Source: a virus
Length of the DNA stretch: 61,299 bases
Virus record (IMG/VR): IMGVR_UViG_3300007760_000655
Coordinates: 1-61,299 of that record
Reading direction: 5' to 3' (one strand)
Translations under genes and position numbers: made by a program
Notes under the pieces: model-generated
What the model saw: only the letters and a program-made list of their open reading frames with translations
What the model was told of the DNA's origin: nothing
The model's database searches: none
Shown: piece after piece, positions 30,513 through 59,587 of the stretch
Position numbering within the stretch: position 1 is the first letter of the stretch
Layout: every line of letters starts with the position of its first letter

Positions 30513-30629
30513 ACAGTTTCCTCTTAAATTAAGTTGGAGGCTGTTGTAGGACAGCCTGCCTAAACCTGTTGCTCTTATACCAACCGAGGTGTTTTTCGTC
30601 ATGCCTCATCCGACTACAGGATATTTTCT

Positions 30630-31090
30630 CATTGAGGGGTCTTCCCGTGACCTATCCTTAGTTAAAGTCTAATCTATTTCAGCCCCATCAGGGTGACACT
30701 AACACACTAAATGTGTGGGAGGAGCATGTTAATGCCACATTGGTGGAGCTGGCTGGTACTGCCCCAGCGTGCTAAAACCATTGGATTTAATCCTTTCGCA
30801 GATATAGGCAAAAAAGTGGGGGGAGGTTTCCGCGTCTGACCTCACCCCCGCCTAGGCTACGTCTATTAGAATTTCTTTTCTCTCAAAGAGGGAAGTCGAT
30901 TCAAGGCACTAGTTTCCCATGACTTCAAGTCTCCTTATTTTAGGGCGTGAAAGACTCCTACGCCCCTAACTACATTTTTTTATCCTGCGATTCGTTTAGA
31001 ACTTGCAGTCTTAACTAGCTGGTTTGGTCTTCGCCCCTTTAGTTGCTAAGCCTTTATCCAACCACCAATCAGTACGGAATGCTATCAATA
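30630..31090 (-). ncRNA. ssrA: Circularly permuted tmRNA (acceptor end upstream of 5' end)
   Basis: On the minus strand, CAGCTCCACCA ends at 30741; it is preceded by a 5-bp T-arm stem (GCTGG/CCAGC, 30752-30768). After a 54-nt linker comes GGGGCTGA at 30686, which pairs with CAGCTCC exactly as in E. coli tmRNA. GATTAGAC resembles the conserved GATTCGAC. The P2 helix AGGATAGGT (30650-30658) pairs with GCCTATATCT (30800-30809) with one bulge. Pseudoknot-like stems lie at 30940-30969, 30892-30926 and 30816-30849. A candidate tag, ASSKRIAG plus stop, is at 31006-30980, about 240 nt before the CCA as in one-piece tmRNAs. A PK1-like helix pairs 31021-31027 with 31058-31063. The T-loop (GGCAGTA) lacks TTC. 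Outer ends are approximate. Confidence 0.78.
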
Positions 31091-31202
31091 CCCCCTCTGA
31101 CGAGTTTTCGGGTCAGTTGTTTCTGTTCCCCTACTTGATACTGAAGCCCTTATTTGACATTGGCTGTTAATTACTGGTTAAATTTCTCAATTTCTGAACT
31201 AT

Positions 31203-31231
31203 ATTATACTCGGAAATCACCAAAATGTCAA
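31203..31231 (-). promoter_or_regulatory. Promoter for the tmRNA
   Basis: Minus strand -35 TTGACA (31226-31231), -10 TATAAT (31203-31208), 17-bp spacer with GGTGATT. The transcript would begin near 31196, about 190 nt before the candidate tag. Confidence 0.8.
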
Positions 31232-31241
31232 GTTATATTTT

Positions 31242-31337
31242 TCAGAGAAGGATTAGGTAAGAAATCCAATATACCCAAGCGGCTATTAGTCCAACCACCA
31301 AAAATGCAAATATTAAATTGTTATGTATTGTTTTCAT
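31242..31337 (-). CDS. 31-aa membrane peptide
   Basis: MKTIHNNLIFAFLVVGLIAA followed by WVYWISYLILL: one long hydrophobic helix. The ATG overlaps the stop of the 48-aa gene by 4 bases (ATGA). Function unknown. Confidence 0.5.
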   Translation of the reverse strand: MKTIHNNLIFAFLVVGLIAAWVYWISYLILL

Positions 31338-49209: not shown

Positions 49210-49310
49210 TATTTGCAGCATTTATGATTGGCTTCATTGTGGGATGGATAGTCAATGAAAAATTAGAAAAAGGAATCGGCAACTTAAATCCTTGGAAAAA
49301 TAGGAAATGA
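49206..49310 (+). CDS. 34-aa membrane peptide
   Basis: MIFAAFMIGFIVGWIVNEKL then a short charged tail. Overlaps both neighbours by 4 bases (ATGA at its stop and the cyclase start). Confidence 0.5.
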   Translation: MIFAAFMIGFIVGWIVNEKLEKGIGNLNPWKNRK

Positions 49311-51136
49311 AGAAGCTAGCTGTAATAGTGCCATTATTATTGGCATTGTTACTTACATTCGTACACTATAACGGTGGCAAGGTTGTAGAAACGGCCAAGC
49401 TTAAACAGTTCGATTTACTTCAACAAACAGATGAACCCGTACTATCTCAGGATATTGGAGTTCTCACAATAGATGAGGAAGCTATAGAGAAGTATGGTCA
49501 ATGGCCTTGGTCTAGAGAAATACTAGGTGATTTAATTTGGAACTTACGCGAGGCGGGAGCAGGCATAATAGTTGTTCCAATCCTTTTTTCGGAAGAAGAT
49601 AGGCTAGGTGGAGACGAGTTATTTGTATCCGCACTACCAAACAACGGTGTAGTTATTGCACAGGTTGGTTCTAGCCAAATAAATAAGAATGGTGTACCTA
49701 GAGGTGTAGCGAAAATAGGAGACCCAATTCCGTTCCTCTTTGAGTGGGGCGGTATGCTTGGGCCGATACCCTTATTAGGACTGAATGCAGATGGAGTTGG
49801 AGTACTAAATACGGTACCCGAGATTGACGGAGTTGTACGTCGATTGCCTCTTATGATGCGCATAGGAGAAGAAGTATATCCTTCAATAGCGGTGGAAGTA
49901 CTTAGAGTTGCAACTGGTAATCCTTCATATCAGGTTAAGGCTAACGCGGGCGGTATAAGCGCAGTACGTGTTAAAGGTTTCCCAGTTATGAAGACTGACC
50001 AGAATGCTCGAATCTGGCTGAGGTGGAATAAGAAATTTGATACAGTTTCTGCCGCCTCTACCGATTTATCTTCTTTTGAAGGGAGAACAGTATTAATAGG
50101 AGCAACGGCGGAAGGTGTTGGTGGTAAGATTGGCTCACCAACTGGCCCACAACATAACTTCATCCCTGCTGCAGTTTCTTTACAAACACTAATAGAGGGA
50201 GAAACTATACAGAGGCCGTACTGGGCTCATACTGCGGAATTACTAACAACATTACTACTTGGATTATTTATTGTTGTTTTAGTAAGGTTTGCTCCGTACT
50301 GGTTAATTGGATTATTCTTTGCAGTAGATATAGGTGCGCTTGTTTACGGTACATTGTACGCATGGCAGAACTACTTATATTTACTGAATATGACAATGGC
50401 TCTGACTACTACTTTAATAGTAGGACTCGTAGCAGTATTTGGCAGATTTATAATAGAATTTAAAGCCAAACAACTTATTAAGAAACAGTTTGAGCACTAT
50501 CTCGACCCACGACAGGTCGCTATACTGCAAAAGAACCCAGAGATGCTTAAGTTGGGTGGCGATAGGAAAGAAATGTCGTTTTTGTTTTCTGACATTGTAG
50601 GGTTTACCCCAATTTCAGAACATTTTAAAAATAATGATGACCCAGAAGGGTTGTGTGAATTAATTAATGACTACCTGGATAGAATGACCAAAATTATTAA
50701 CGATAATGGTGGTTGTGTAGATAAATATATGGGTGACTGTATTATGGCGTTTTGGAACGCACCTATACCATGTGAGAACCACGCCGAGATGGCTGTAAAG
50801 AGTTCTATGGAGATAGCAGTCGAGACAGAGAAGCTTAAAGCCGAACTAGCTGCTAAAGGGTTACCAGAAATAAAAATAGGCTCTGGTGTGAATACTGGAG
50901 ATTGTATTGTTGGTAATATGGGTTCCAAGACTAGGTTTGATTATTCTTGTATCGGTGACGCAGTTAACTTAGCCGCTAGACTTGAGGCACAGACTAGACA
51001 ATATCCTAACTGTACTACTTTATACTCATCTTACACAATGGAACAATTACCTAATAATATGAAGTCAGTAGAAATTGATAAAGTTAAGGTGAAAGGTAAA
51101 GATGAACTAGTTACTATATATTCACCAACGGAGTAA
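49307..51136 (+). CDS. CHASE2-domain adenylate cyclase
   Basis: 609 aa. A first transmembrane helix (LAVIVPLLLALLLTFV), a CHASE2-like sensory region (~30-300) with PWSREILGDLIWNLR and VLIGATAEGVGG, three more helices (~310-385), then a class III cyclase. Catalytic metal aspartates are D429 (FLFSDIVGFT) and D477 (KYMGDCIMAFW); DYSCIGDAVNLAARLEAQT is also conserved. The first helix places CHASE2 outside the membrane and the cyclase inside. It would make cAMP in response to an extracytoplasmic signal. CHASE2 cyclases and FecR proteins often occur together in bacteria (from memory), and here a FecR gene lies 4 kb downstream. Confidence 0.88.
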   Translation: MKKLAVIVPLLLALLLTFVHYNGGKVVETAKLKQFDLLQQTDEPVLSQDIGVLTIDEEAIEKYGQWPWSREILGDLIWNLREAGAGIIVVPILFSEEDRLGGDELFVSALPNNGVVIAQVGSSQINKNGVPRGVAKIGDPIPFLFEWGGMLGPIPLLGLNADGVGVLNTVPEIDGVVRRLPLMMRIGEEVYPSIAVEVLRVATGNPSYQVKANAGGISAVRVKGFPVMKTDQNARIWLRWNKKFDTVSAASTDLSSFEGRTVLIGATAEGVGGKIGSPTGPQHNFIPAAVSLQTLIEGETIQRPYWAHTAELLTTLLLGLFIVVLVRFAPYWLIGLFFAVDIGALVYGTLYAWQNYLYLLNMTMALTTTLIVGLVAVFGRFIIEFKAKQLIKKQFEHYLDPRQVAILQKNPEMLKLGGDRKEMSFLFSDIVGFTPISEHFKNNDDPEGLCELINDYLDRMTKIINDNGGCVDKYMGDCIMAFWNAPIPCENHAEMAVKSSMEIAVETEKLKAELAAKGLPEIKIGSGVNTGDCIVGNMGSKTRFDYSCIGDAVNLAARLEAQTRQYPNCTTLYSSYTMEQLPNNMKSVEIDKVKVKGKDELVTIYSPTE

Positions 51137-52521: not shown

Positions 52522-52951
52522 TCTAAATTTCAGTTTTAGTAACCCATCATTTAGTGGGGAAGGGTACTCAAGCCACGTACTGTCGATTGAGCAACTGCAA
52601 CACAATAGAGAACAAGGTGTACTAGATGACGCAACCGCAGCAGAGAAAGCCGCGGATAGAGCAGCTAAGAACACTACTTTAGCTAAGTTTGTAACTAATG
52701 TTGAAAGTCGTATATTTGCAAATCTTTCTAAGCAGATGGTGGATAATATGTTTGGTACTAATTGTACTCCATCTGATGATGAAATAGCAGATGACGTAGA
52801 ATGTCCTACCTCAGGTTCAGCAACTTTACCAGATGGGTCTACCGTACATTGGATAAAGGATGAAACAGCAGAAACTATTACATTAACAGTTACCGATGCT
52901 TCTGGAAGTATAACTCAATTGATTGTACCAGTGGGTGATTTTAAATTTTAA
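52466..52951 (+). CDS. csgF: CsgF-like curli assembly factor
   Basis: 161 aa. Signal peptide MKLKLTILLLLSLTAQA ends at an A-x-A site, and the mature start GNLNFSFSNPSFSG lines up with E. coli CsgF GTMTFQFRNPNFGG, the part that inserts into the CsgG pore. The C-terminal half (DETAETITLTVTDASGSITQ, then LIVPVGDFKF) resembles the CsgF end. Two cysteines lie in the middle. It precedes csgG directly, as in curli operons. CsgF anchors curlin at the outer membrane channel. Confidence 0.8.
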   Translation: MKLKLTILLLLSLTAQAGNLNFSFSNPSFSGEGYSSHVLSIEQLQHNREQGVLDDATAAEKAADRAAKNTTLAKFVTNVESRIFANLSKQMVDNMFGTNCTPSDDEIADDVECPTSGSATLPDGSTVHWIKDETAETITLTVTDASGSITQLIVPVGDFKF

Positions 52952-52961
52952 GGTGATTAAT

Positions 52962-53858
52962 ATGGAGTACCTAGCAATAGCTTTATTATCCTGTGTAGTG
53001 GGAGCTTGTTCTGTTAATCAAAAAACAGAAGCAATACAGGGCGATATGCCTTTTGTACAAGGAACTCCAACTAAAACCTTGTTACAAGAGATGCCAGAGC
53101 TGATAAACGTGCCGACAGATGGCGAGGGTAACCCAGTAAAGATTACGGTAGCTGTTTACAAGTTCCCTGATGTTACAGGACAGAGAAAGCCAGTTGGATT
53201 ATCGACAGCAGTTTCACAAGGAGCTGATGTATGGGTTATACAGGCTTTAATGGCAGTTAGTAATGGAGAATGGTTCACAGTTGTCGAAAGAGCGAGTTTA
53301 GACTCTTTAGTTAAAGAAAGACAACTTATAAGGAGTACTAGAGAATTATATGACGGCACAGACGCAGGAGATGCGTTACAGCCTATGTTATTCGCAGGTT
53401 TAATATTAGAAGGCGGTATTGTTGGTTATGATACTAACACAACAAGTGGGGGTGCTGGAGCAAGATATTTTGGTTTAGGTTCACATGAAGAATATAGAAC
53501 AGACCAAGTAACAATATCTTTAAGACTCGTTGCTGTACAGACAGGAGAGATTCTACTGACTGTATCATCAACTAAAACAATAGCAAGTATCAGTAATGGA
53601 GCAGATGTATTTAGATTTTTAGATTTGGGTACAAGAGCTTTAGAAATAGAATCAGGCAATGCAGCGAATGAGCCAGTTAACTATGCTATTCGAACTGCAA
53701 TTGAATACGGAATTTTACAAATGCTTTACGACGGTAAAGAAAAAGGGCTATGGGAGTGGGAAGAATCAACAACCGCAGAAGTTGTTGAGAACGTAGTCGA
53801 TTATGAATTAGTAGACGGTTGGGCACAACACCCAATTTCTGAAAAACAAGGGGAATAA
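52962..53858 (+). CDS. csgG: CsgG-like curli secretion channel
   Basis: 298 aa from 52962 (MEYLAIALLSCVVGACSVNQ), with AAGGTGA upstream; lipobox VGAC. Match to E. coli CsgG is extensive: VAVYKFPDVTGQRKP, VERASLDSLVKERQLIRS, GGAGARYFGLGSHEEYR, VSSTKTIAS, VFRFLDLGTRALE. It would form the outer-membrane nonameric pore with CsgF. The constriction loop is shorter: E. coli KPYPASNFSTAV versus KPVGLSTAV, so the Tyr-Asn-Phe residues that narrow the pore are missing. Confidence 0.88.
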   Translation: MEYLAIALLSCVVGACSVNQKTEAIQGDMPFVQGTPTKTLLQEMPELINVPTDGEGNPVKITVAVYKFPDVTGQRKPVGLSTAVSQGADVWVIQALMAVSNGEWFTVVERASLDSLVKERQLIRSTRELYDGTDAGDALQPMLFAGLILEGGIVGYDTNTTSGGAGARYFGLGSHEEYRTDQVTISLRLVAVQTGEILLTVSSTKTIASISNGADVFRFLDLGTRALEIESGNAANEPVNYAIRTAIEYGILQMLYDGKEKGLWEWEESTTAEVVENVVDYELVDGWAQHPISEKQGE

Positions 53859-53875
53859 GAATATGGGAGAGTAGT

Positions 53876-54991
53876 ATGAAACTTATAACATTCTTTATCA
53901 TGTTAATGATGAGTTTGCCCTCTATGGCAACAAATAAGATTTATGTAACCCAAGCAGGTGCATCACTTGTATTTGATGTGTTACAAGACGGCGATGGCAA
54001 CATGATAGGTAATAGTACTACAGCTTCCACCGCCAGTGGTTCAGCAACAAATTTTAATATAGACCAGGTTGGTAATAGTAATATAATTACTTTTGATATT
54101 CATGGTGATAGCTTTACCGGTGTGTGGAGTACAACAGGTAATAGTAACAATATTGATTTTAACTGTGATTCGGCGGATGCTACTTCAGGATGTGATAGTG
54201 TTAATGCTACAATCACCTTTACAGGTAACTCACAAGATATTGATATAGATGTGGGTCTTACCTCATCAAAGTCAGGTGATAGCGCTGATATTGATGTTGT
54301 TGGTCAATCAGGTACGGACAGTACTGTTGTTGCTGCTACAATTGATGGCACAAGTGCAATATTAAGATTAACAATTGATGGTGATACTAATAACTATCTA
54401 ATCGATATTGACGATAATGGAGATGTTAACGGTCATACTTTAATTATGACACAGACGGGAATTACAGCAGATGTTGATGTAGTTCAATCGGGTTCTTACG
54501 ATAATATAGCAACAGTAACAACAACAGGTGACTCACAAAATATTGATATCAATCAGACTGCTGGAGGTTCAATAACAGCAACAACTACTGGAAGTACATC
54601 ATCTGCAGTTAAAACACTAAATATTAACCAGACAGGACATGCAACATTTAATACAGATGGTACTATTCTTGGGCAAACATCTTCTGGTTTAGCTGGTGCT
54701 GGTGGTACTTATGATATAGATCAAACAAGTACTGGTACAATCAATTTAGATGTCAATGGTGCAAGTGCGAATGTCAGTATTGAACAAACAAGTACAGGCA
54801 CAGTTCACATAGATGCTGCGGGTTCAAGTTTTACAGCTGATATAGACCAAGATAATGCAAGTACAATTTCATTACACCATGACGGGGCAAGTGCAGATTA
54901 CGTTATTTTGCAGACTGGCGGTAGTGGTGACATCTTAACTTTAACAGTAAATGGTGCAAGCGCAAATGTGGACATTATTCAGAGGGATTAG
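53876..54991 (+). CDS. Curlin-like amyloid subunit 1
   Basis: 371 aa. Signal peptide (MKLITFFIMLMMSLPSMA), then curlin-type repeats with Q-x-G-x-x-N features: KIYVTQAGASLVFDVLQDGD, NFNIDQVGNSNIITFDIHGD, DIDVVQSGSYDNIATVT, SVEIEQ-like units (VSIEQTSTGTVHID, FTADIDQDNASTISL). The pattern of alternating beta strands and glycine turns matches CsgA-like amyloids, but the protein is much longer. It overlaps the FecR gene by 26 bases. Confidence 0.75.
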   Translation: MKLITFFIMLMMSLPSMATNKIYVTQAGASLVFDVLQDGDGNMIGNSTTASTASGSATNFNIDQVGNSNIITFDIHGDSFTGVWSTTGNSNNIDFNCDSADATSGCDSVNATITFTGNSQDIDIDVGLTSSKSGDSADIDVVGQSGTDSTVVAATIDGTSAILRLTIDGDTNNYLIDIDDNGDVNGHTLIMTQTGITADVDVVQSGSYDNIATVTTTGDSQNIDINQTAGGSITATTTGSTSSAVKTLNINQTGHATFNTDGTILGQTSSGLAGAGGTYDIDQTSTGTINLDVNGASANVSIEQTSTGTVHIDAAGSSFTADIDQDNASTISLHHDGASADYVILQTGGSGDILTLTVNGASANVDIIQRD

Positions 54992-56072
54992 TCTATTACT
55001 AATTAGTACTTCAATTCTAGCTAATATAGGTTTAGTAACAAAATTTAGTGGAAGTGCTGCGATAGAGCGCGATGAAGGTTTTGAAGTATACGAGGTAGAG
55101 AAAGACCTTGGGGTGGAAATGCTAGATGTTGTTGCGACAGCAAAAGGTAAAGTACAAATAGACTTCATTGACGAAACCAGGGTTGATGTAACAGAGCACA
55201 GTCGTTTAGTAATTGATGACTTTGTGTACGACCCAGCTTCCCAAGAGGGTTCTCTTTCACTAAAAGCTAGCCTCGGTACTATAAGATACGCAAGTGGGCA
55301 GATAGCAAAGACTAGCCGTCAGAATGTTAAGATTACTACTCCTAGTGCTGTAATTGGTGTTCGTGGAACAGATTTTACAATGACAGTAGACGAGATTGGC
55401 GGTTCTACTATTATTTTGTTGCCTTCTTGTGATACAAATGGTAATTGTTTTGTGGGAGAGATTTCAGTTGAGTCTGATGCAGGTATGGTTATCATGAATC
55501 AAGCGTTTCAGGCTACTACTGTAGCTACAAGCGCAAGTAGACCATTAAAACCAGTAGTTCTAGATTTAGAGGAAAGTTTAATTAGTAATCTATTAATTAT
55601 ATCTAAACCTAGAGCAATTGCAGAGGCGGAACAAACTCAAGAACTAAATAAGGTTGCCACTGCGTTAGATATTGATTTCTTAAAGTTTGAGGACTTAGAT
55701 ATAGATTTTCTAGCAGAAGAAGAGGATACTTGGAAAACTGCTCTTGATACAGATTTCTTAGACCAAAACTTTTTAGGCGATATTTTAGCCCAATTGAATT
55801 TACAACTAGCTTTACAAATGAGAAGCGAGTTTGAGAAGCAGAAGAAAGTGGGAGATTTAAAATTAGGTAAAGATTCAGAAACAGGAATAACTTTATTAGA
55901 TGAAGACCCCGAATGGTATTGGCATAGGGAAGCCGCAAGTGGCAGTGTTATAGAATTCAGACTTGAAAAAGAAAATAGTTACATTATAAATATAGTGCAA
56001 GGCGATTTTGAGTTAATTGACTTCGAGCTAGGGGGTACAGAAAGTGAAATCACTATTTACCAAAGTCAGTAG
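54966..56072 (+). CDS. FecR-domain envelope protein
   Basis: 368 aa from 54966 (MWTLFRGISLLLISTSILAN), with a signal peptide. FecR-domain core: KGKVQIDFIDETRVDVTEHS, SLGTIRYASGQ and TPSAVIGVRGTDFTM. The C-terminal half has Asp/Glu-rich helices and ends GGTESEITIYQSQ. FecR domains sense or bind envelope ligands and signal inward. Here it sits between two curlin-like genes and downstream of the cyclase. Confidence 0.8.
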   Translation: MWTLFRGISLLLISTSILANIGLVTKFSGSAAIERDEGFEVYEVEKDLGVEMLDVVATAKGKVQIDFIDETRVDVTEHSRLVIDDFVYDPASQEGSLSLKASLGTIRYASGQIAKTSRQNVKITTPSAVIGVRGTDFTMTVDEIGGSTIILLPSCDTNGNCFVGEISVESDAGMVIMNQAFQATTVATSASRPLKPVVLDLEESLISNLLIISKPRAIAEAEQTQELNKVATALDIDFLKFEDLDIDFLAEEEDTWKTALDTDFLDQNFLGDILAQLNLQLALQMRSEFEKQKKVGDLKLGKDSETGITLLDEDPEWYWHREAASGSVIEFRLEKENSYIINIVQGDFELIDFELGGTESEITIYQSQ

Positions 56073-56838
56073 TATTTTATTATTATGTTTACCTGTATTT
56101 GCTAATAATGAAATATACATCACCCAAGTTGGTACAAGCAATAGTTTCACCCTTGACATCTTACAAGATGGTGATGATAATGTAGTACAAATTTCTGTAT
56201 CACATGACAGTAATAGTATTGATATTGACCAAGAAGGAAACAATAATACAATTAGTTGGGTTTCTTACTGGGGGTCTGGTCAAGGTTGGGGTGGTGATTT
56301 AGATGGTTCAAGTAATACTTTAAAATTTGAACAATATAATACAACAGGCACAGATGCAAATAAGATAGGGTTTCATATACCAAGTAGTAATAATACTATT
56401 CATCTTTGTCAAGGTAAAACATTTGATAACTCATCTGATACAACTTGCGAACCAACCACATCATCTGAATATGGTGGACATACAATTGATTTAGATATTC
56501 ATTCTGGCGGCACAGATTTAAAAGGCTCACAAGAAACTGGCACGGGCAATGCAGACCACTATGCAAGAGTTTATACTTACAACGGTGATAATAATGACAT
56601 TTTCTTTAAACAATCAGGTAATGGAGATAAATGGTTATCATTAATCGTTAGAACCGATAACGGGGAGCAAGAGATTATACAGGCGGGTAATGGTGACCAC
56701 ACAGCAACAGTAGATTTAACTGGTGCTTATACAACAGATTTATCATTGACTCAAAATAGTAGCTCAGATAAAACATACACATTAACAAATAACTGCCAAA
56801 CATCATCAGGGTGCAGTATTACAGTAACACAGAATTAA
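56044..56838 (+). CDS. Curlin-like amyloid subunit 2
   Basis: 264 aa, GTG start, signal peptide (MKSLFTKVSSILLLCLPVFA). Mature part starts NNEIYITQVGTSNSFTLDIL then QDGDDNVVQI, very similar to subunit 1; further repeats include SIDIDQEGNNNTISW and IFFKQSGNGDKWLSLIV. Four cysteines are placed in the middle and end. It overlaps FecR by 29 bases. Two related subunits may play the CsgA and CsgB roles. Confidence 0.75.
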   Translation: MKSLFTKVSSILLLCLPVFANNEIYITQVGTSNSFTLDILQDGDDNVVQISVSHDSNSIDIDQEGNNNTISWVSYWGSGQGWGGDLDGSSNTLKFEQYNTTGTDANKIGFHIPSSNNTIHLCQGKTFDNSSDTTCEPTTSSEYGGHTIDLDIHSGGTDLKGSQETGTGNADHYARVYTYNGDNNDIFFKQSGNGDKWLSLIVRTDNGEQEIIQAGNGDHTATVDLTGAYTTDLSLTQNSSSDKTYTLTNNCQTSSGCSITVTQN

Positions 56839-57502: not shown

Positions 57503-57752
57503 AGATACATTATGGATTTATACAAGTATAGTTGGAGCCTTATTAGGCGCAGCTTTCTTGTTTTATATAAAGGATACTAGAGTAGGTCTTTGGGGCTACT
57601 CACAGTTTGATAAAACAGTAGACTACTGTAGGGATTATTTAGGTTGGACATGGCTAAACCAAGACCCAGATGCTTGGAAGAAGGTAAACCCTAAGATAGC
57701 TGCAAAGATTGGGGAGTTGGAAAAGCGCCTCGAAGTGCTAGAGGAGAAGTAA
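57495..57752 (+). CDS. Small membrane protein
   Basis: 85 aa. One hydrophobic helix (TSIVGALLGAAFLFYIK) and a helical, charged C-terminus (IAAKIGELEKRLEVLEEK). It overlaps its neighbours. Function unknown. Confidence 0.55.
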   Translation: MFEDTLWIYTSIVGALLGAAFLFYIKDTRVGLWGYSQFDKTVDYCRDYLGWTWLNQDPDAWKKVNPKIAAKIGELEKRLEVLEEK

Positions 57753-58525
57753 TGACTATATCCGAAATGAATTTAAAGCAAAGAAGTCTGCTCTTTGCAA
57801 GATTATCAGCAGATGCTTACGGAAAGGAGTCAGCAGTTAGGGAGGCAGTAAAAGAGTACGGATTTAAAGATATAGAATTTTATAATCTTCATGGAGCTCA
57901 AGCTTATCGATTTGAGAATAAAACTGATATTGTAATTGCCTGTCGTGGAACGCAACCTACAGAATTTAATGACTTAAAAGCAGACCTTAAAGCGTTCCCA
58001 GTAGTAGCTGAAACAGTCTCAAGAGTACATAGAGGCTTTAAAGCAGAGGTCGATGAACTTTGGCCTGAAGTTAGAAAAGATACTTTTACAAGTAAAAAGC
58101 TGTGGTTTTGTGGGCACTCTTTAGGAGCAGCAATGGCTACTATTATGGCTTCTCGTTGTATGGATGACCCAGCTTTAGCAAACCCAATTCAGTTATATAC
58201 TTATGGTTCACCACGAGTTGGTTGGCCTAAATATGTAAGGTCATTAAAAGTAGACCACATAAGGTGGCAAAATAATAATGATATAGTTACTCGTGTACCT
58301 TTAAAAATTATGAATTATAGGCATCATGGTAAATTACATTATATTAGTAGTACAGGAAAGATAAACTCTACTGGCAGGTCTAACTGGTTTAGTAGATTTA
58401 AAGATAGATTAAATGGTATGTGGTTAGGCTTAAAGAAGGGACAAATTGACAACTTCTCTGACCACGCTATGGTAGGTTATATTGACTATTTAAAGAAATG
58501 GAATGGTTTTTATAAAGAACTTTAA
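57752..58525 (+). CDS. Lipase class 3 family protein
   Basis: 257 aa. Nucleophile elbow GHSLGAAMA, IACRGTQP (oxyanion), TYGSPRVG, and NDIVTRVP give a Ser-Asp-His type triad. No signal peptide is obvious, so it may reach the membrane after holin action, or act on inner phospholipids. Overlaps the previous stop by one base. Confidence 0.85.
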   Translation: MTISEMNLKQRSLLFARLSADAYGKESAVREAVKEYGFKDIEFYNLHGAQAYRFENKTDIVIACRGTQPTEFNDLKADLKAFPVVAETVSRVHRGFKAEVDELWPEVRKDTFTSKKLWFCGHSLGAAMATIMASRCMDDPALANPIQLYTYGSPRVGWPKYVRSLKVDHIRWQNNNDIVTRVPLKIMNYRHHGKLHYISSTGKINSTGRSNWFSRFKDRLNGMWLGLKKGQIDNFSDHAMVGYIDYLKKWNGFYKEL

Positions 58526-58585: not shown

Positions 58586-59587
58586 ATGAATAAATTCGAT
58601 TATGTATGGTTAGATGGCTATTTGCCTGAACCTAACCTAAGAAGTAAAGTAAAAATAGGTAAAACTGCAGATGTGTGGTCATTTGATGGCTCATCTACTA
58701 AGCAAGCTACAGGGGATAAATCAGATTGTATCTTAAACCCAGTAGCACATTATAAAACAATTGACAGAATTCGTCCTGACGCTACACGTACGGGTCCAGG
58801 GTTGGGTGGTACTTATGTAATGTGTGAAGTTTTAGACGCAAACTATGAGCCGCATGAAAGTAATACTAGAACATACTGTGAAGGTATAAGTGAGGATTGG
58901 TGGTTTGGGTTTGAACAAGAATACTTTATGTATAAGAATGGGCGCCCACTAGGGTGGCCTAGTGAGCTGAGAGGAGACCCAGAACCGCAAGGAGAGTACT
59001 ACTGTGGCGTCGGTACGGGTAATGTAGTGGGCAGAGCAATTGTTGATAGACATACTGAAGCTTGCATGAATGCAGGAATAGGTATAACAGGTACTAATGC
59101 TGAAGTTGCCTTAGGGCAATGGGAGTATCAGGTATTAGGTAAAGGAATAAAGGCGGGAGACGACTTATGGATGTCCCGTTATATTCTTATTAAGATTGCA
59201 GAGAAACACGGTGTAGAAATCAATTTCCACCCCAAACCTCAGCAAGGTGATTGGAATGGGTCTGGTATGCATACTAACTTCTCTAATAGTTTCATGAGGA
59301 ACGAAGGGGGAGAAATGGAACTGCTAAGCATGTGCCATAAATTAAGTTTAAACCACGAAGTAGCTATGGTATTATATGGTTCTAATAACAACTTAAGATT
59401 AACAGGGAAGCATGAAACCCAATCTATAGATAAATTTAGTTACGGAGTTAGTGACAGGGGAGCAAGTATACGTATCCCTGCTATAGTAGCTACTGAATGG
59501 AAAGGGTACTTAGAGGATAGGAGACCCGCTTCAAATGCAGACCCTTACAAAGTAATGCGACATATTGTCGAAGCATTAGAAGAATAG
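58586..59587 (+). CDS. glnA: Glutamine synthetase, type II (eukaryote-like GSII)
   Basis: 333 aa. GSII signatures: [74 protein letters not shown], and the latch region [15 protein letters not shown]. It makes glutamine from glutamate and ammonia. GSII is the decameric plant and some-bacteria type, not the usual GlnA dodecamer. Confidence 0.9.

What the first reader, a model, noticed from the sequence alone, without database searches (positions are those of the whole stretch)
30630..31196. Circularly permuted tmRNA, possibly with a new break point and an unusual T-loop
The minus strand has CAGCTCCACCA, then a 54-nt linker, then GGGGCTGA, which pairs with it exactly as in tmRNA. GATTAGAC, the P2 helix and pseudoknot-like stems support this. 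In known two-piece tmRNAs the tag is expected in the piece that begins with the 5' end. Here I find no convincing tag there; a candidate (ASSKRIAG, 31006-30980) is upstream of the acceptor. This would mean the break lies before the tag. The T-loop is GGCAGTA rather than TTCRANY.
Basis: partly seen in the sequence, partly recalled or inferred. Interest (0 to 1): 0.9.

Follow-up and report, generated by a model that had tools for sequence, protein, structure and literature searches.

The report
Phage split tmRNA missing usual tag
A T5-like marine phage carries a circularly permuted ribosome-rescue RNA (tmRNA) cut at the usual place, but in its small clade the usual protein-destruction tag cannot be found and about 390 bases of new folded RNA sit between the promoter and the gene, so it may rescue or jam ribosomes rather than mark proteins for destruction.

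Summary
On the minus strand, CAGCTCCACCA (30751-30741), a 54-nt hairpin spacer and GGGGCTGA (30686-30679) form the tRNA-like domain of a circularly permuted tmRNA. Rfam finds it just below its cut-offs (45.3 bits against 47; 43.0 against 50). Two related phage contigs (L003, L012) share the arrangement, and the acceptor stem covaries. The T-loop is not unusual: GGGGC[AG]GTACC is the alphaproteobacterial consensus, found in over 100 viral contigs.

A new break point is not supported. Related T5-like phages carry ordinary permuted tmRNAs with tags such as ANANTYALAA downstream of the spacer, and the window's downstream piece is homologous to theirs. The proposed upstream tag ASSKRIAG sits on a hairpin whose frame breaks in L003.

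Two things are odd in this three-member clade. No tag ending in Ala-Ala is found, whereas 87 of 93 candidate viral permuted tmRNAs have one. And a covarying, pseudoknotted insert of about 390 nt, found nowhere else, lies between a perfect sigma-70 promoter and the acceptor piece.

Most likely a phage two-piece tmRNA lost its degradation tag and acts by ribosome rescue without tagging, or by sequestering SmpB. That function is inferred.

The parts
31203..31231 (-). sigma-70 promoter TTGACA-17-TATAAT
   Evidence: 12 of 12 match; conserved at the same distance in L003 and L012
30797..31196 (-). structured RNA domain between the promoter and the acceptor piece; absent from relative L047
   Evidence: covariation across window, L003, L012; promoter to CCA 462/451/462 nt here against 73 nt in L047
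31085..31144 (-). stem Ha with inner hairpins Hb, Hc
   Evidence: Ha: 2 pairs changed on both sides; Hb: 1
31016..31064 (-). hairpin Hd (UGGUUGG/CCAGCUA) with He
   Evidence: G-C to A-U compensatory change plus single-sided changes
   Evidence: frame interrupted in L003; Hf itself is invariant, not covarying
30926..30966 (-). H-type pseudoknot: S1 GGGGCGU/ACGCCCU, S2 GAGUCU/AGACUU
   Evidence: S2 is AAACAU/AUGUUU in L003; 4 pairs changed on both sides; no such helix in 60 column shuffles
30892..30926 (-). hairpin Hi GAAGUC/GACUUC
   Evidence: 2 pairs changed on both sides
30797..30854 (-). pseudoknotted hairpin: Hj UAGGC/GCCUA, Hk 10 bp, loop CGCGGA pairs with UCUGCG (30802-30797); Hk is followed by ACUUUUUU
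   Evidence: Hj 3 and Hk 7 pairs changed on both sides; Hl one G-U to G-C change
30772..30784 (-). 3' strand of P2 (CCAATGGTTTTAG), imperfect
   Evidence: sequence; about 9 pairs with mismatches against 30667-30656
30752..30768 (-). T-arm GCTGG-GGCAGTA-CCAGC, alpha-type T-loop
   Evidence: Rfam alignments
30741..30751 (-). 3' acceptor strand plus CCA end
30687..30740 (-). intervening sequence, folds as a long hairpin; 50 nt identical in L003 and L012 apart from an 11-nt deletion in the window
30680..30686 (-). mature 5' end, acceptor strand GGGGCTG
30656..30674 (-). GATTAGAC D-loop motif and 5' strand of P2
30604..30658 (-). possible PK1: AGGATA/TATCCT with CCTCA/TGAGG
   Evidence: read from the sequence; not conserved in L003/L012, which have another small pseudoknot
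30575..30583 (-). possible end of a vestigial tag (TTG GTA TAA)
   Evidence: same stop context GGTATAAGAGCA as L003; weak
30533..30564 (-). 3'-terminal hairpin of the coding piece
   Evidence: homologous to L041 and L002
30189..30512 (-). thioredoxin gene downstream
   Evidence: PF00085, E 1.2e-26

Best explanation
This is a phage-encoded, circularly permuted, two-piece tmRNA with the conventional break: acceptor piece first, then a hairpin spacer that tRNA-processing enzymes remove, then the piece with the mature 5' end. In this small clade the degradation tag has been lost or cut to a few residues without the Ala-Ala end. The transcript also gained about 390 nt of structured RNA (two pseudoknots) between its promoter and the acceptor piece. 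Shown: the permuted tRNA-like domain, its homology to tagged tmRNAs of related phages, the missing standard tag, and the structured insert. Inferred: processing into two pieces, charging with alanine, and an action that rescues or blocks stalled ribosomes, or ties up host SmpB, without marking proteins for proteolysis.
For: Rfam RF04321 and RF01849 hits. Covarying acceptor stem, T-stem and spacer hairpin. Same arrangement in L003 and L012. Related phages have full permuted tmRNAs with tags ANANTYALAA, ANANTYAIAA, ANANTYSLAA or ANDNVYAIAA. The coding-piece 3' end is homologous. 87 of 93 distinct viral candidates have a tag ending in Ala-Ala; two more end in LVA or VAV and one is not a tmRNA, leaving only the window, L003 and L012. 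Structured insert: 23 of 83 pairs changed on both sides, 264 of 272 cells paired, tRNA-like stems included; 4 covarying helix placements against 0 in 60 column shuffles. Promoter 12 of 12; L047 has a similar promoter 73 nt before CCA against 462 here. A tag-less phage tmRNA of the tRNA-like domain only is known (DS6A), and a similar molecule inhibits tmRNA (PMC4131195).
Against: Rfam scores are below the gathering cut-offs. Only three sequences carry the insert. P2 is imperfect. Very short, non-standard tags remain possible at the normal place (L003 AGT CTA CTG GTA TAA; L012 AGT CCG CTA CTT AAG TGC TAG). A small upstream frame ending in Ala-Gly-stop is partly shared. No RNA data. The set was scanned with one tag rule and not curated by hand apart from the misses.
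Confidence: 0.66

Rival explanations
1. One reading: the break moved, and PK1, tag (ASSKRIAG) and PK2-PK4 now lie upstream in the acceptor transcript, with only the tRNA 5' half and P2 downstream.
For: The order hairpin - candidate tag - pseudoknot - hairpin - pseudoknot - P2' - T-arm resembles a one-piece tmRNA; a frame ending in Ala-Gly-stop is shared by the window and L012 and, for its last codons, L003.
Against: In L003 the frame is stopped 5 codons before the end; the conserved letters are explained by hairpin stem Hf; no Ala-Ala end; no pseudoknot directly upstream (Hd/He are nested); the downstream piece is homologous to tag-bearing pieces.
Confidence: 0.1
2. The insert is a separate cis-regulatory leader or free-standing ornate RNA, and the tmRNA is expressed by read-through. 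Hk followed by ACUUUUUU looks like an intrinsic terminator, so the leader could switch tmRNA synthesis. (Compatible with the tag loss in the best explanation.)
For: Terminator-like hairpin and U-run at 30849-30812; a glutamine riboswitch is reported with the permuted tmRNA of phage Melnitz (PMC9004378); ordinary relatives have short structured-looking stretches there too.
Against: L003 has only four U's; Hj and pseudoknot Hl pair across the U-run and covary, so the read-through form is selected; no known riboswitch matches.
Confidence: 0.3
3. A decaying tmRNA pseudogene: tag and P2 are eroding and nothing is made that works.
For: Tag unrecognisable; coding piece folds no better than shuffles; 11-nt deletion in the spacer.
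Against: Acceptor stem stays fully paired through compensatory change; the spacer still folds after the deletion; the insert covaries; the promoter is a perfect consensus in all three.
Confidence: 0.1

Closest known systems
Permuted two-piece tmRNA (Rfam RF04321; RF01849 alpha, RF01850 beta)
   Same: Order acceptor - spacer - 5' piece, acceptor stem, T-arm, D-loop motif, P2, coding-piece 3' hairpin
   Different: No tag ending in Ala-Ala found; acceptor side carries about 390 nt of extra structured RNA; score just below the Rfam cut-offs
Permuted tmRNAs of related T5-like phages (L041, L045, L047, L055, L056)
   Same: Same kind of phage (NrdB about 69-76% identical); in L047, L041 and L055 close downstream of NrdB and before a thioredoxin-fold gene; homologous coding-piece end (L041, L056)
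   Different: They have clear tags (ANANTYALAA and kin) and none of the insert
Mycobacteriophage DS6A tmRNA (tRNA-like domain only)
   Same: Phage tmRNA without a tag frame; a similar molecule inhibits host tmRNA (PMC4131195)
   Different: Listed as little more than the tRNA-like domain, without an extra structured domain
Phage Melnitz permuted tmRNA with glutamine riboswitch (PMC9004378)
   Same: Marine phage, permuted tmRNA with a structured RNA element attached
   Different: No Rfam riboswitch here; loss of the tag is not reported there

Membership tests
permuted two-piece tmRNA | acceptor 3' strand with CCA lies upstream of the mature 5' end and the strands pair | tested here: met
   7 of 7 pairs; compensatory C-G to A-U
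permuted two-piece tmRNA | T-arm and GA-rich D-loop motif of the tRNA-like domain | tested here: met
   Rfam alignments
permuted two-piece tmRNA | score above the Rfam gathering cut-off | tested here: not met
   45.3 against 47; 43.0 against 50
permuted two-piece tmRNA | P2 joins the two pieces | tested here: inconclusive
   about 9 pairs with U-U mismatches; little variation
permuted two-piece tmRNA | tag reading frame in the 5' (coding) piece, hydrophobic Ala-Ala-type end | tested here: not met
   none in window, L003, L012; 87 of 93 viral candidates have one. Tag-less tmRNAs are known (mitochondria, DS6A), so this marks a variant rather than an exclusion
permuted two-piece tmRNA | PK1 upstream of the tag | tested here: inconclusive
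   plausible pseudoknots, but different in window and relatives
permuted two-piece tmRNA | cleavage into two pieces, alanine charging, SmpB binding | not testable with these tools
   no RNA or protein data; phage record lacks smpB
   frame stopped in L003
tmRNA interrupted by a group I intron | intron core in the T-loop | tested here: not met
   T-loop is intact; no RF00028 match at E up to 5

The most novel reading that the evidence does not exclude
A phage has remodelled a two-piece tmRNA into a tag-less RNA with a large pseudoknotted domain of its own, used to capture stalled ribosomes or SmpB and shut down or redirect host trans-translation during infection.
Probability: 0.3. Interest if true: 0.75.

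Novelty: new variant of a known kind. Interest (0 to 1): 0.52.

Why it matters
Phages often carry tmRNAs and their role is not established. A clade that keeps the tRNA-like domain but drops the degradation tag separates ribosome rescue from protein tagging and gives a direct test of what phages gain from tmRNA. The covarying insert of about 390 nt is a structured RNA found in three phage contigs and in no Rfam family.

Tried and rejected
New break point with an upstream tag (frame broken in L003). Unusual T-loop (it is the alpha consensus). Known RNA family for the insert: nothing at E up to 5 besides the tmRNA. More relatives of the insert: patterns in viral contigs and GTDB genomes, blastn against phages, covariance models R1/R2 over 21 whole records and 66 loci: only the window, L003 and L012 (R1 matches at E 0.06-0.08 in G010, G011, G013 are weak). 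First helix script used a wrong offset and stopped; the MAFFT alignment misplaces Hj/Hk, so these were counted on a hand alignment, which favours the structure. MFE of the whole insert in the window is no better than shuffles (z 0.0; L003 -2.3, L012 -1.6), so energy gives no support for structure in the window; the case rests on covariation. Own smpB: none. L081 in the tag survey is not a tmRNA.

Full report
What is there. The window is a 61,299-base virus record; its closest annotated polymerase relatives are T5-like phages. On the minus strand a perfect sigma-70 promoter, TTGACA-17-TATAAT, lies at 31231-31203. Some 450 nt downstream comes a T-arm, CAGCTCCACCA (30751-30741), a 54-nt spacer, and GGGGCTGA with GATTAGAC (30686-30667). 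Permissive Rfam search gives tmRNA_permuted 45.3 bits, E 2.8e-7, and alpha_tmRNA 43.0 bits, E 2e-10, both just under their cut-offs; default searches and ARAGORN miss it. The T-loop fits the alpha_tmRNA consensus and is common in viral permuted tmRNAs, so it is not unusual.

Relatives. Two contigs, L003 and L012, share the whole stretch from promoter to thioredoxin gene. The acceptor stem changes by compensation (GGGGCTG/CAGCTCC against GGGGATG/CATCTCC). The spacer folds as a strong hairpin in the window (z -5.0) and in L003 (z -5.7), although the window lacks 11 nt of it. More distant relatives found through NrdB carry ordinary permuted tmRNAs with tags ANANTYALAA (L047), ANANTYAIAA (L045), ANANTYSLAA (L041, L055) or ANDNVYAIAA (L056). 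In L047, L041 and L055 the gene lies close downstream of NrdB and before a thioredoxin-fold gene, as in the window. L056 fits the beta_tmRNA model end to end. L047 has a promoter of the same type only 73 nt before the CCA end.

Where the tag should be. In those phages the tag follows GTAAAC in the downstream piece. The window's downstream piece keeps their 3' hairpin (TTTAGGCAGG...CCTCCAAC, better than all 500 shuffles against L041 and L002), and L012 also keeps the post-tag stretch GGATTGAATACGCCCGA...AAAATTTGTT of L056. The break is therefore conventional. But no standard tag is left: 87 of 93 distinct viral candidates have a tag frame ending in Ala-Ala; of the six without, L132 ends in ALVA, L149 in LVAV, L081 is not a tmRNA, and the other three are the window, L003 and L012. 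At the normal place L003 offers SLLV and L012 SPLLKC; in the window only an end ..LV-stop can be proposed. None is conserved across the three.

The insert. Between promoter and acceptor piece lie about 390 nt that L047 lacks. Alignment of the three sequences supports stems Ha-Hl with two H-type pseudoknots. With the tRNA-like stems included there are 83 pairs, 23 with changes on both sides, and 264 of 272 cells paired, on a hand alignment. An unbiased scan of the MAFFT alignment found four covarying helix placements (two distinct helices) and none in 60 column shuffles. Free energy alone does not show structure in the window (z 0.0). Patterns and covariance models found the element nowhere else. 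The last pseudoknot sits directly upstream of P2', the position of PK4 in one-piece tmRNA, which in alphaproteobacteria is reduced to one helix (PMC1168896). Typical two-piece tmRNAs keep PK1 and PK2 in the coding piece (PMC3985003).

How it may work (inferred). The transcript would be cut at both ends of the spacer, as in other permuted tmRNAs. The tRNA-like domain could be charged with alanine, bind host SmpB (the phage record has no smpB) and enter stalled ribosomes. Without a degradation tag it would either release ribosomes after a few codons, or block them or titrate SmpB, as suggested for a molecule like the tRNA-like-domain-only tmRNA of phage DS6A (PMC4131195). The insert may stabilise the RNA, act as an enlarged pseudoknot domain, or be a regulatory leader: hairpin Hk followed by ACUUUUUU resembles a terminator, and phage Melnitz has a glutamine riboswitch associated with its permuted tmRNA (PMC9004378). 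These options are not separated by the data.

Verdict. The permuted tmRNA is real; the new break point and the odd T-loop are not supported. The tag loss and the covarying RNA domain are the interesting parts, resting on three sequences and no experiment.

Noticed in passing
window 30740-30687; L003, L012: About 50 nt of the spacer are identical in three phages whose flanking RNA differs by 17-24%; the reason is unknown.
   Followed up: partly
window 49307-51136 (+): Phage gene for a CHASE2 domain plus class III adenylate/guanylate cyclase catalytic domain, unusual in a phage.
   Followed up: partly
window 52923-56838 (+): CsgG curli-pore homologue, a FecR-domain protein and two repeat-rich proteins that look like curlin-type repeats (repeats by eye). 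Melnitz and pelagimyophages also carry curli pore genes (PMC9004378).
   Followed up: partly
window 58586-59587 (+): Glutamine synthetase (catalytic and beta-grasp domains), next to a class 3 lipase at 57752-58525.
   Followed up: no
window 31242-31337 (-): 31-residue membrane-like peptide ORF just before the tmRNA promoter; similar sequence in L003 and L012.
   Followed up: no
L041, L045, L055, about 70-290 nt upstream of CCA: A shared structured-looking stretch (GAACCACTTT...CGAGTGCTTCC) upstream of ordinary phage tmRNAs, with no Rfam match in L055 or L059 (the L045 contig); L056 has another. Variable RNA elements seem common there.
   Followed up: partly
L051/L060: Permuted tmRNA with an unusually long spacer (about 170 nt) and tag VTANNNDYSSYMALAA; the spacer seems to encode a short basic protein.
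   Followed up: no
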